This document shows positions 10,078 to 13,851 of a stretch of 64,000 nt of DNA, one piece after another. The DNA is from Palleronia sp. THAF1. GTDB taxonomy: Bacteria > Pseudomonadota > Alphaproteobacteria > Rhodobacterales > Rhodobacteraceae. The stretch covers positions 2,337,001-2,401,000 of the forward strand of contig NZ_CP045420.1 in the NCBI RefSeq assembly GCF_009363795.1, written 5' to 3'. A program made the translations under genes and the position numbers. Position 1 is the first letter of the stretch, and each line of letters starts with the position of its first letter. The notes beneath the pieces are model-generated. The model did not search any database, was not told where the DNA came from, and worked only from the letters and a program-made list of their open reading frames with translations.

Positions 10078-11175
10078 TCACGATTGCGGTGGCAGATGCA
10101 CGGCCTCGCCCGTAGCCGCAGATTTCTGTGCCGCGAGCCCCATTTCAACGGCCCGCGCGCCGTCCGCCAGCGTCACTTCGACCTCCGCCCGGCCCAAAAC
10201 AACCTCCCTGAATCGCTGGTGCTGATAGAAGGTCGCGCCGTTATGATCACCTGCTTCCAGCAACCGCGGATCGACCGGAAGTTCCAGCGTTTCCGGCCCC
10301 TTGGGATGGCGGGGGCTGACCACAAGCTGCGCCGTCGGGCTGGGACCAAGCGCTTCGGGCCAGAAGCGCGTCGGTCCAGGCACGAACGCCTCGACCTTGC
10401 CCGCGTGACCCGTCAGCGCGATCTCTTCCTGCCAGCGACCGCCCTCGGCGAACATGCACAACTCCAGCATCGCCCGCGCACCACTTTCGAAATCAACCAG
10501 CACGTATCCGCTGTCCAGAATGTCCGGCACGCGATCCCCGTAAACCTCGTCCTTGTGGTTCAGTTCCTGCCCCGCGCTGGCCATGATCCGTACCGGCTCG
10601 GACTGCAGAATCAGGCGCATCAGATCGAAGAAATGGCAGCATTTCTCGACGAATGTGCCGCCGGTGAAAGCGTTGAAGCGGTTCCAGTCACCGACCTTGT
10701 CCAGAAACGGAAAGCGATGCTCACGAATCGACAGCATGCGCGGTGCGCCGGTCGCGCCGGTCGCCTTGTCGATCAACGCGGCGATGGGGGGCATGTAGCG
10801 GTATTCCATCGCCACCCAGACCGGGGCCGGATAGTCGATCGCCGTCAAGGCCGCGGCCTGATCTTCGCTTGTGTACAACGGCTTTTCGATCAACAGCGGC
10901 AGGGCCCGGCGCTGCGCAATCTCCATCATTTCAGGGACATGCAAAAAATTCGGCGATGCGATGACCAGCGCATCCAGCGGGTCGTGCGCCAGCAGCTCGG
11001 CAATTGATCCGTATTGCACCGCATCCGGTACCAGCGCGCGGGTATGCCTTGCCATACCGGGGTCAGGCTCCAGGAATGCGACGACCTCGGCCCCATCCAG
11101 AAGCGCGATATTGCGGATGTGCTCTTGCCCCATCATCCCGCATCCGATGATGCCGTATTTGACTATTTCGTGCAT
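10078..11175 (-). CDS. Gfo/Idh/MocA family protein; possible NAD-dependent sulfoquinovosidase (GH188-like)
   Basis: A 365-residue protein with an N-terminal Rossmann domain (YGIIGCGMMGQEHIRN) and the EKP motif (IEKPLY near residue 97). GDWNRFNAFTGGTFVEKCCH is in the C-terminal domain. Most members oxidise or reduce sugars and inositols with NAD(P). Some members of this structural family are NAD-dependent glycosidases (GH109, GH188), and GH188 acts on sulfoquinovosides. Because the divergent operon resembles sulfoquinovose monooxygenase genes, a glycosidase role is attractive, but this is inference. A generic sugar dehydrogenase is the default alternative. Confidence 0.8.
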   Translation of the reverse strand: MHEIVKYGIIGCGMMGQEHIRNIALLDGAEVVAFLEPDPGMARHTRALVPDAVQYGSIAELLAHDPLDALVIASPNFLHVPEMMEIAQRRALPLLIEKPLYTSEDQAAALTAIDYPAPVWVAMEYRYMPPIAALIDKATGATGAPRMLSIREHRFPFLDKVGDWNRFNAFTGGTFVEKCCHFFDLMRLILQSEPVRIMASAGQELNHKDEVYGDRVPDILDSGYVLVDFESGARAMLELCMFAEGGRWQEEIALTGHAGKVEAFVPGPTRFWPEALGPSPTAQLVVSPRHPKGPETLELPVDPRLLEAGDHNGATFYQHQRFREVVLGRAEVEVTLADGARAVEMGLAAQKSAATGEAVHLPPQS

Positions 11176-11295
11176 TCGCAGCCCTGACCTTCGTCGCGTT
11201 TACCCGCCAACTATTCATTTCCGTGCATCACGATGAGCATGGGAACCCGGCTTCGCCCGCCGCTTCACTAACCGCAATTGATGCACCCCCACAGG

Positions 11296-11312
11296 GCTGC
11301 TACGCAAGCAGC
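11296..11312. promoter_or_regulatory. Candidate operator (inverted repeat) before the monooxygenase operon
   Basis: Perfect 6-bp arms GCTGCT / AGCAGC separated by five bases, three bases upstream of the AAGGAG ribosome-binding site of the monooxygenase gene. The palindrome could be a repressor site in the 152-base gap between the divergent Gfo/Idh gene and the operon. No regulator gene lies next to it. Confidence 0.35.
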
Positions 11313-11327
11313 ATAAGGAGCCTTCCC

Positions 11328-12482
11328 ATGACCGTTGTCCCTGTCACCTCAGCCGATCTCGACGCCGCAGAGGTCTCTTGGTTCGCCGCCCTGTGTTCCG
11401 ACGATTACACGCAGTTGGGCGTACCCGATGGTGATCTGCGGTCAAGCTGGACACACTGCCGCGACATCGCGCTGGAGGCCGAGCGTCAATCTTTTCGCAA
11501 CATTTTGTGCCCATCATCCTATCAGGTCGGTCAGGACACGCTGTCATTCGTCGCCGGAATGGCACCGCTTACGGAAAGGATGAATTTTCTGGCCGCGATC
11601 CGCTGCGGAGAGATGCAGCCGATCATGCTCGCGCGCACGGTCGCGACACTGGATCACATGCTGGAAGGACGGCTGACTTTGAATGTCATCTCGTCCGACT
11701 TTCCGGGGGAGAAGGCTGACAGCGACTACCGTTACCAGCGCAGCCGCGAGGTGGTGGAGATTCTGAAACAGGCTTGGACGCAGGATACGATCACCTATCA
11801 CGGACAGGTCTACGATTTCGATGCCGTCCCGACGGACCCCGCCAAACCCTACCAGACCGGCGGTCCTCTGCTCTACTTCGGCGGCTACTCTCCGTCGGCG
11901 CTGGAATTGTGCGGCCAGCATTGCGACGTCTACCTCATGTGGCCCGAACCAAAGGACCAGATCGCCGAACGGATGCGCGCCGTGAACGACGTGGCCGCCC
12001 GCTATGATCGCACGCTCGACTACGGCCTGCGCGTCCACATGATCGTGCGCGACACGGAAGCAGAGGCGAAGGAATACGCCGAACACCTGACCGCTCAGCT
12101 TGACGACGAGATGGGAAAGCTGATCCGCGAGCGCGCCCATGACAGCGGTAGCCTGGGTGTCAGCCATCAGGCCCGTGCGCGCGAATTGGCGGACCAGTTC
12201 GGCTATGTCGAACCCCACCTCTGGACCGGCATCGGCCGCGCGCGGTCGGGCTGCGGCGCCGCACTGGTAGGATCGGCGGACCAGGTCCTTTCAGAAATCG
12301 AGGCGTACCGGAAAATGGGCATCCGCTCGTTCATCTTCTCGGGTTACCCGCATCTGGACGAGTGTCGCCATTTCGGCCGACTGGTCATGCCTCAGTTGAC
12401 AACCTGCTCGCTACCCCATGTCTACGGTCGCGTACCGGACACCACTCCGGCCACGCCCCTTGGAACAGGAGACCGCCGCTGA
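11328..12482 (+). CDS. FMNH2-dependent alkanesulfonate/sulfoquinovose-type monooxygenase (SsuD-like, LLM class)
   Basis: A 384-residue bacterial-luciferase-like monooxygenase. It closely follows the SsuD pattern: LARTVATLDHMLEGRL, PLLYFGGYSPSALEL, DVYLMWPEP, GLRVHMIVRDTEAEA, LVGSADQV and FIFSGYPHLDE. Such enzymes use reduced flavin and O2 to release sulfite from a C-S bond. ATG 11328 has AAGGAG eight bases upstream; an earlier in-frame ATG adds 35 residues without family character. The stop overlaps the aldo/keto reductase start (TGATG). With that gene and a flavin reductase it matches SmoC-SmoB-SmoA of the sulfo-SMO route. Confidence 0.87.
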   Translation: MTVVPVTSADLDAAEVSWFAALCSDDYTQLGVPDGDLRSSWTHCRDIALEAERQSFRNILCPSSYQVGQDTLSFVAGMAPLTERMNFLAAIRCGEMQPIMLARTVATLDHMLEGRLTLNVISSDFPGEKADSDYRYQRSREVVEILKQAWTQDTITYHGQVYDFDAVPTDPAKPYQTGGPLLYFGGYSPSALELCGQHCDVYLMWPEPKDQIAERMRAVNDVAARYDRTLDYGLRVHMIVRDTEAEAKEYAEHLTAQLDDEMGKLIRERAHDSGSLGVSHQARARELADQFGYVEPHLWTGIGRARSGCGAALVGSADQVLSEIEAYRKMGIRSFIFSGYPHLDECRHFGRLVMPQLTTCSLPHVYGRVPDTTPATPLGTGDRR

Positions 12483-13369
12483 TGGACCGCGTCAGACTTT
12501 CGCCCGACCTGGAGATCAGCCGCATCGTTTACGGCATGTGGCGGCTGGCCGATGACGGCGCCGACACGGCGCCCAAAGCCGTGCAGGAAAAGATCGAAGC
12601 CTGTCTCGAACAAGGCATCACCACCATGGATCAGGCCGACATCTACGGCGGATACATGGCCGAAGAAGTGATGGGAGCCGCGCTGACACCCAATCTGAAA
12701 CGCCAGATCGAGGTTGTCACGAAATGCGATATCGTCGCGCCGGCAGGGCGTCACGCGAAGGCACGCATCAAGCACTATGACACCAGCCGCGCGCATATTG
12801 TCCGCTCTGTCGACACCTCGCTGCGGCTGATGGGGATCGACCGGATCGACCTTCTGTTAATCCACCGCCCCGATCCGTTCATGGACCAGCACGAGACGGG
12901 CCGAACGCTGGACGCGTTGGTCGCTCAGGGAAAAGTCCGCGCCGTTGGCGTGTCGAACTTCAAGCTGCACGACTGGACCCTGCTGCAATCCGCGATGACA
13001 TCGCCGCTGGTGACGAACCAGATCGAGATGAGCCTTGGCCACGTTGCCCCTTTCACCAACGGCGATCTCGCCTATCTGCAAGAGCGCAACGTCGCACCGA
13101 TGGCATGGTCGCCCTTGGGTGGCGGCGCACTGATGACTGGCACCGGCGCGCTGGAAACCGCGATGGACGAAGTCGCCGCACAGGCCGGCGTGGACCGTGC
13201 CGCCGTTGCGGTCGCCTGGCTTCTGGCGCATCCGGCCGGTATCGTTCCGGTCCTTGGCACCAACAATCCGCGCCGCATCCGCAGCATCTCTGACGCGGAG
13301 AGGGTAAAGATGGATCGAGAAACATGGTTCCAGCTTTACACCCACGCTCTGGGCCAAGAGGTTCCATGA
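12482..13369 (+). CDS. Aldo/keto reductase (YdhF/SmoB-like)
   Basis: A 295-residue aldo/keto reductase. Predicted catalytic tetrad: Asp50 and Tyr55 in MDQADIYGG, Lys81 in VVTKCDI and His128 in LLLIHRPDP. NADP-binding segments include RAVGVSNF and the late PVLGTNNPRRI. It resembles the YdhF branch (GMWRLADDG near the start). In the sulfo-SMO pathway, SmoB reduces 6-oxo-glucose from the monooxygenase to glucose; the position between monooxygenase and flavin reductase supports that role. Another aldehyde substrate is possible. Starts inside the preceding stop and ends inside the next start. Confidence 0.87.
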   Translation: MDRVRLSPDLEISRIVYGMWRLADDGADTAPKAVQEKIEACLEQGITTMDQADIYGGYMAEEVMGAALTPNLKRQIEVVTKCDIVAPAGRHAKARIKHYDTSRAHIVRSVDTSLRLMGIDRIDLLLIHRPDPFMDQHETGRTLDALVAQGKVRAVGVSNFKLHDWTLLQSAMTSPLVTNQIEMSLGHVAPFTNGDLAYLQERNVAPMAWSPLGGGALMTGTGALETAMDEVAAQAGVDRAAVAVAWLLAHPAGIVPVLGTNNPRRIRSISDAERVKMDRETWFQLYTHALGQEVP

Positions 13370-13851
13370 CCGACCTTCAGCCATTCACGCAACGCGAGCT
13401 GCGCGACGCTTTCTCGCGTTTCGCCACCGGCGTCACTGTCGTCACGACGGAGGCCGCGTCCGGGCCTCTGGGCATCACCGCGAACTCCTTTACCTCGGTG
13501 TCTCTGGACCCGCCGATGGTGTTGTGGCTGCCCGCCAAATCCTCGCGCCGTTTCACGCCGTTCACCGATTGCAAGACCTTCGCGATCCACGTCATGGGCG
13601 CCGGGCAAGAGACGATCAGCAACGGCTTCGTATCCGAAGGCGATCTGTTCGACGATCTCGACTGGACCCGAGCCGATGACGGCACACCGCTGATCCAGGA
13701 CTGCCTAGCCCGCTTTCACTGCGAAACCCACGCGGTGCATGACGCGGGTGATCACGCCATCGTCGTCGGCCGGGTTTTGGACGCGCAACACCGCAAGGGA
13801 GATCCGCTGATCTTCGCGCAGGGCCGCTATGGGGGGTTCGCATCGAGCTAG
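13366..13851 (+). CDS. Flavin reductase (NAD(P)H:FMN oxidoreductase) partner
   Basis: A 161-residue flavin reductase-like (split-barrel) protein. Family features: FSRFATGVTVVTTE at the start, ITANSFTSVSLDPPMVLW for flavin binding, and a C-terminal GRYGGF. It would supply FMNH2 to the monooxygenase two genes upstream (SmoA/SsuE-like role). ATG 13366 overlaps the aldo/keto reductase stop by four bases, so the three genes are coupled. Its end overlaps the convergent PsiE-like gene by four bases. Confidence 0.88.
   Translation: MTDLQPFTQRELRDAFSRFATGVTVVTTEAASGPLGITANSFTSVSLDPPMVLWLPAKSSRRFTPFTDCKTFAIHVMGAGQETISNGFVSEGDLFDDLDWTRADDGTPLIQDCLARFHCETHAVHDAGDHAIVVGRVLDAQHRKGDPLIFAQGRYGGFASS

What the first reader, a model, noticed from the sequence alone, without database searches (positions are those of the whole stretch)
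10078..13851. Candidate compact sulfoquinovose (sulfo-SMO) cluster with a Gfo/Idh-type glycosidase
Seen: an SsuD-like monooxygenase, a YdhF-like aldo/keto reductase and a flavin reductase overlap head to tail by 1 and 4 bases, divergent from a Gfo/Idh/MocA protein. Known: the sulfo-SMO pathway of Agrobacterium uses exactly these three enzyme types (SmoC, SmoB, SmoA), and some Gfo/Idh-fold proteins (GH188) are NAD-dependent sulfoquinovosidases. Inference: the four genes could release sulfoquinovose from glycosides, remove sulfite and reduce the product to glucose. No transporter, GH31 hydrolase or regulator is adjacent, so it would be a reduced version or a different organosulfonate pathway.
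Basis: partly seen in the sequence, partly recalled or inferred. Interest (0 to 1): 0.75.

Follow-up and report, generated by a model that had tools for sequence, protein, structure and literature searches.

The report
Stripped-down sulfoquinovose-degrading gene cluster
Four genes of a Palleronia-group bacterium encode what look like the known enzymes that free the plant sulfosugar sulfoquinovose and turn it into glucose and sulfite, but this lineage lacks the transporter and the regulator that its closest relatives keep beside them, so it is a trimmed example of a known pathway.

Summary
The system is not new: GH188 in Roseobacter sulfo-SMO clusters was published in 2023, and SmoC is in 124 of 295 sampled genomes of the family. 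What is particular is what is missing. Ten genomes of the genus, the window's own included, have SmoC. Seven have sqgA-gntR | smoC-smoB-smoA-dctQ-dctM-dctP; the window genome and two relatives have no close homologue of this GntR regulator or TRAP binding protein. A tandem repeat at the smoC promoter, near-exact in 79 of 81 loci with gntR, has decayed in the same three; the promoter-like core is intact in two. The remaining genes are under purifying selection. Best reading: a working, probably constitutive sulfo-SMO pathway fed by an unidentified transporter. A rival, turnover of the cell's own sulfolipid (the genome encodes an SqdB homologue), is possible but gets no support from co-occurrence across the family.

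The parts
10078..11175 (-). sqgA: GH188-type NAD-dependent sulfoquinovosidase (Gfo/Idh/MocA fold)
   Evidence: PDB matches 8zn9 (3.2e-154, depositor name 'Oxidoreductase, putative') and SqgA 8qc3/8qc2 (1.2e-113/1.7e-112) against 7.2e-15 for the next; residues K98, Y125, R154, L158, K160, E177, H181, H311 match reported SQ contacts of ArSqgA
11176..11327 (.). Divergent intergenic region; promoter-like TTGATG-N17-TACGCA kept, upstream half of the tandem repeat lost
11328..12482 (+). smoC: FMNH2-dependent sulfoquinovose monooxygenase
   Evidence: 7olf/7oh2 (1.8e-210, 3.6e-207) against 4.5e-55 for SsuD 1m41; 244 of the 518.2 bits of the SsuD equivalog cut-off; tree
12482..13369 (+). smoB: aldo/keto reductase, 6-dehydroglucose to glucose
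   Evidence: 7bby/7bbz (5.4e-124, 6.4e-124) against 7e-60 for YdhF 1og6
13366..13851 (+). smoA: flavin reductase supplying reduced flavin
   Evidence: Flavin_Reduct 3.2e-40; a homologue follows smoB in most related loci (59 of 78)

Best explanation
A sulfolytic sulfoquinovose (sulfo-SMO) cluster. SqgA, with a catalytic NAD+, releases sulfoquinovose (SQ) from sulfoquinovosyl glycerol or similar glycosides; SmoA reduces flavin; SmoC uses it with O2 to split SQ into sulfite and 6-dehydroglucose; SmoB reduces that to glucose. In this species and two relatives the cluster has lost its GntR-UTRA regulator, the matching putative operator repeat, and its TRAP transporter, while the enzyme genes stayed under purifying selection. 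The enzymes are therefore probably made constitutively and fed by a transporter encoded elsewhere. Shown: gene content, homology, residues, losses, selection. Inferred: enzyme activities here, operator function, constitutive expression, alternative uptake.
For: PDB matches and alignments. Eight GH188 contact residues kept. Same order in congeners and on a Rhizobium and a Ruegeria plasmid, there with GntR and TRAP. In G000 the best DctP match is 27% identical, 63.6 bits, and GntR gives no hit at 1e-10. dN/dS against G001: 0.083 smoC, 0.149 smoB, 0.108 smoA, 0.146 sqgA; 0.086 for tatC. Tandem repeat within 1 mismatch in 79 of 81 loci with gntR, 5 mismatches in the window. No GH31 match in G000 and a single SqgA match, so SqgA is the only candidate of the two SQase families named in PMC10755693.
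Against: No activity data. No transporter identified; DctQ and DctM were searched in the window and fetched stretches, not genome-wide. PDB entries 7olf, 7oh2, 7bby are named by depositors only as methanesulfonate sulfonatase, alkanesulfonate monooxygenase and aryl-alcohol dehydrogenase; that they are SmoC and SmoB is recalled (Sharma et al. 2022, not held). dS is near saturation, so dN/dS is rough and averages over time before and after the loss. The repeat pattern was drawn up after looking at these same loci.
Confidence: 0.86

Rival explanations
1. Endogenous sulfolipid salvage: without a dedicated transporter, the cluster recycles SQ released inside the cell from the bacterium's own SQDG.
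For: G000 encodes a SqdB homologue (Arabidopsis SQD1 1qrr, 2.2e-96) followed by a GT8-like gene. In the genus 3 of 3 SmoC genomes without the TRAP have SqdB, against 2 of 7 with it.
Against: Across the family no association: SqdB (79% or more identical) in 8 of 49 TRAP-less and 11 of 75 TRAP-bearing SmoC genomes, Fisher p = 0.80; with weaker SqdB relatives 15 of 49 and 18 of 75, p = 0.53; SmoC and SqdB do not co-occur beyond chance (p = 0.87 and 0.26). The three genomes group together in the SmoC tree, so the genus count is close to one event. Other kinds of transporter were not counted, so 'TRAP-less' is not 'transporter-less'.
Confidence: 0.1
2. Decaying remnant: transport and regulation are gone and the enzyme genes are on their way out.
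For: Other genomes of the genus show decay: G012 keeps smoB, smoA and the TRAP, with no smoC or sqgA match at the locus nor in the genome at the cut-offs used; G004 has a stop inside the sqgA match; G005 has sqgA away from smoC and a degenerate promoter core.
Against: In G000 all four frames are open, constrained, and the promoter-like core has 0 mismatches.
Confidence: 0.06
3. The monooxygenase acts on another organosulfonate (alkanesulfonate, methanesulfonate or taurine).
For: Same superfamily as SsuD; one close PDB homologue carries the depositor name methanesulfonate sulfonatase.
Against: Under half the SsuD equivalog cut-off, and linked to a sulfoquinovosidase-type gene and an AKR in most loci (75 and 76 of 78); in G002 the same SqgA, GntR and TRAP types accompany a sulfo-ED-like gene set.
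Confidence: 0.03

Closest known systems
Roseobacter sulfo-SMO clusters with GH188 SqgA (Kaur et al. 2023, PMC10755693; parts 1-3 of 4 read, supplement not seen)
   Same: Same enzyme types: GH188 SqgA with a sulfo-SMO set, no GH31
   Different: Here gntR and the TRAP transporter found in congeners are absent
Agrobacterium sulfo-SMO (review PMC9594981, passages seen; GH31 membership of its SQase recalled)
   Same: SQ monooxygenase, flavin reductase, 6-dehydroglucose reductase chemistry
   Different: Agrobacterium has an SQ-glycerol ABC transporter and a GH31 SQase
Rhizobium sp. SL42 plasmid cluster
   Same: Same divergent layout; SmoC 78% identical
   Different: Keeps GntR, TRAP and a putative sulfate-exporter-family gene

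Membership tests
sulfo-SMO pathway | SmoC-type monooxygenase distinct from SsuD | tested here: met
   that the PDB references are SmoC is recalled
sulfo-SMO pathway | SmoB-type AKR in the same cluster (SmoB plus SmoC is the criterion used in PMC13372026, passages seen) | tested here: met
   that the PDB reference is SmoB is recalled
[quoted passage not shown]
   Flavin_Reduct; nearest NCBIfam model FerA is below its cut-off, 210.6 of 260 bits, so the exact type is open
sulfo-SMO pathway | Sulfite and glucose made from SQ | not testable with these tools
   needs assay
GH188 | Sulfonate-binding R166, L170, K172 (ArSqgA numbers) | tested here: met
   R154, L158, K160
GH188 | Other SQ contacts K107, Y136, E189, H193, H321 | tested here: met
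   K98, Y125, E177, H181, H311. The paper's Glu163 falls one residue off in my hand count; the glutamate found there is conserved (E152)
GH188 | NAD-dependent cleavage of SQ glycosides | not testable with these tools
   needs assay
SsuD (TIGR03565 equivalog) | Score above the curated cut-off | tested here: not met
   244 of 518.2 bits
Inositol 2-dehydrogenase IolG | Score above the curated cut-off | tested here: not met
   93.5 of 355 bits
GH109 (family of 2ixa recalled) | Closer to alpha-N-acetylgalactosaminidase than to SqgA | tested here: not met
   2ixa 6.2e-4 against 1.2e-113 for SqgA 8qc3

The most novel reading that the evidence does not exclude
A transporter-free, unregulated sulfo-SMO module rewired from scavenging outside sulfosugar to constitutive internal turnover of the cell's own sulfolipid, the enzymes kept and the uptake and control parts discarded.
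Probability: 0.09. Interest if true: 0.6.

Novelty: new member of a known kind. Interest (0 to 1): 0.3.

Why it matters
It adds a further example to a marine sulfur-cycling route and shows that surveys keyed to transporters or regulators would miss apparently intact sulfo-SMO clusters. The joint loss of GntR and of a tandem repeat at the smoC promoter names a likely operator that can be tested at once. If the internal-turnover reading held, it would give a bacterial route for breaking down a cell's own sulfolipid.

Tried and rejected
Endogenous-turnover idea: suggestive in the genus (3 of 3 against 2 of 7) but not in the family (p = 0.80), so kept only as a rival. The family TRAP counts rest, which scored at most 6 first-look candidates per genome and used E up to 1e-100. 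ABC solute-binding protein of L070 as a SmoF-like stand-in: its one PDB match at the cut-off is an arabino-oligosaccharide-binding protein (2.4e-16), so it was not used to search G000, and the alternative transporter stays unidentified. The gene caller written is crude and was not used for counts; gene names read off its output are by eye. Structure prediction and scan_promoters_terminators were not run; 'promoter-like' rests on conservation only. Sulfite-oxidation genes of G000 were not searched. The paper search for Palleronia with sulfoquinovosyl found 0 papers.

Full report
Observation. Left are TatB- and TatC-domain genes; right a PsiE-domain gene that meets smoA tail to tail, then genes of aspartate-kinase and PEP-utilising-enzyme type, which I call lysC and ptsP.

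Identity of the enzymes. Against the PDB sequences the monooxygenase matches 7olf and 7oh2 end to end (702 and 691 bits) and alkanesulfonate monooxygenases of the SsuD kind at about 191 to 199 bits; it reaches 244 of the 518 bits required by the SsuD model. The reductase matches 7bby/7bbz at 416 bits and YdhF at about 206. I recall these entries as SmoC and SmoB; the depositors' names are less specific, and in a search for the entry codes (listing only) no listed title was about them. The Gfo/Idh protein matches 8zn9 ('Oxidoreductase, putative') at 516 bits and SqgA 8qc3/8qc2 at 383/379 bits, the next at 58. 8QC2 and 8QC3 are SqgA by the paper's own data statement. In a tree of 27 rows the window falls in a set of 23 Roseobacter and Rhizobium SL42 SmoC rows (support 87/87); a Novosphingobium and a second Rhizobium monooxygenase, an Emticicia one and E. 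coli SsuD lie outside, the last two on long branches, with the root placed at the midpoint only.

GH188 residues. Kaur et al. (PMC10755693, parts 1-3 of 4 read) give K107, Y136, R166, L170, K172, E189, H193 and H321 as SQ contacts in ArSqgA. Counting by hand along the alignment these are K98, Y125, R154, L158, K160, E177, H181 and H311 here, all identical, and all invariant in the five sequences. The paper's Glu163 is one off in my count; the glutamate there is kept.

How common. SmoC at E up to 1e-100 is in 10 of 14 genomes of the genus, the window's own (G000) included, and 124 of 295 sampled in the family, one of them a partial match with a stop. The genus includes Palleronia caenipelagi, pontilimi, salina and rufa, judged by matching contig lengths and coordinates. 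Kaur et al. report near-universal GH188 in Roseobacter sulfo-SMO clusters. So the system is known.

What is missing here. Of 78 loci longer than 12 kb (duplicates removed; the named ones come from the 80 best of at least 591 hits, so biased to close relatives; the window itself not counted), sqgA was found in 75, gntR in 75, smoB in 76, smoA in 59 and this dctP in 35 (with four duplicates 79, 79, 80, 63 and 39 of 82). So lack of this TRAP is common (43 of 78), lack of gntR is rare: L103, L119 (G001) and L120 (G005) only. In the genus, the seven SmoC genomes G003, G004 and G006-G010 have sqgA-gntR | smoC-smoB-smoA-dctQMP. G000, G001 and G005 have neither gntR nor this TRAP at the locus. Genome-wide their best DctP matches are 26-27% identical, and GntR gives nothing in G000 at 1e-10 and 32-33% matches in the other two; DctQ and DctM were not searched genome-wide. 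Their SmoC proteins group together (94/95, just under the tool's mark for firm support), so one loss of regulator and transporter is the simplest account; the genes after smoA differ between G000 and the other two, so later rearrangement is needed. In G005 sqgA lies elsewhere.

Putative operator. Upstream of smoC a tandem repeat TTGATNNANNNTTGATNNA is present with 0 mismatches in 68, 1 in 11 and 5 in 2 of 81 loci with gntR (38 short loci and 4 duplicates were dropped before counting); of 2540 mononucleotide shuffles about 0.1% reached 2 mismatches and none fewer. The pattern was drawn up from loci of the same set, so the comparison between loci with and without gntR is the informative part. 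The downstream repeat doubles as the -35 of a promoter-like TTGATG-N17-TACGCA (0-1 mismatches in 64 of 81). Of four counted loci without a gntR match, L089 starts 201 bases before smoC, so gntR could not be seen, and has the repeat; L103 (Roseivivax marinus), L119 and L120 lack it (6, 4 and 5 mismatches), as does the window (5). The promoter-like core has 0 mismatches in the window, L119 and L103, 4 in L120. L103 looks like an independent loss. A scan of 14 genus genomes with one mismatch allowed found 11 matches: 8 just upstream of smoC or gntR (by the coordinates), 3 elsewhere, against 2 for the reversed control; none in G000, G001 or G005, nor in G012 and G013, which lack both smoC and gntR matches. 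That GntR binds this repeat is inference; in searches for SQ with TRAP transporter and SQ with GntR (listings only) no listed title was on a Roseobacter SQ regulator or transporter.

Still working? dN/dS against G001 is 0.083, 0.149, 0.108 and 0.146 for smoC, smoB, smoA and sqgA, with tatC at 0.086. Against the other genomes it runs higher, up to 0.38 for smoA. Synonymous change is near saturation, so these are rough.

Own sulfolipid. G000 has a SqdB homologue (the NCBIfam model is matched at 2.7e-98 but below its cut-off, 329 of 575 bits) with a GT8-like gene after it. That made internal turnover worth testing. In the genus 3 of 3 TRAP-less SmoC genomes have SqdB and 2 of 7 with TRAP; in the family 8 of 49 and 11 of 75, p = 0.80; counting weaker SqdB relatives 15 of 49 and 18 of 75, p = 0.53. 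Not supported, not excluded.

Verdict. A known pathway in a trimmed form: new member of a known kind, with a testable operator and an unanswered uptake question.

Noticed in passing
L138:7002-19125 (unnamed congener G002): Same SqgA and GntR types, tandem repeat (1 mismatch) and TRAP, but beside a sulfo-ED-like set (SMP-30 lactonase-type, SDR, IlvD/Edd-type dehydratase, HpcH-type aldolase, YeiH-like exporter below its cut-off) instead of smoCBA: looks like a module swap within the genus.
   Followed up: partly
L139 (unnamed congener G012): smoB, smoA and dctQMP remain between tatB and psiE, with no smoC, sqgA or gntR match at the locus: a likely relic.
   Followed up: partly
L103 (Roseivivax marinus): smoC-smoB-smoA-TRAP with no gntR or sqgA match within the stretch, tandem repeat lost, promoter-like core intact: parallel to the window.
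   Followed up: partly
L108 (Rhodobacteraceae MAG): gntR, sqgA and smoC all in one direction, no smoB or smoA match, and a different TRAP downstream.
   Followed up: no
L182 (Rhizobium sp. SL42 plasmid): Roseobacter-type cluster with GntR, TRAP and a putative sulfate-exporter-family gene on a plasmid, suggesting transfer.
   Followed up: no
G000:C1:1670194-1671408 (L147 1162-2379): SqdB-like UDP-sulfoquinovose synthase with a GT8-like gene next to it: the window's organism may make SQDG.
   Followed up: partly
L043, L090, L119: After smoA what looks by eye like the same run of ABC ATPase, FtsX-like permease and further genes appears in different genera.
   Followed up: no
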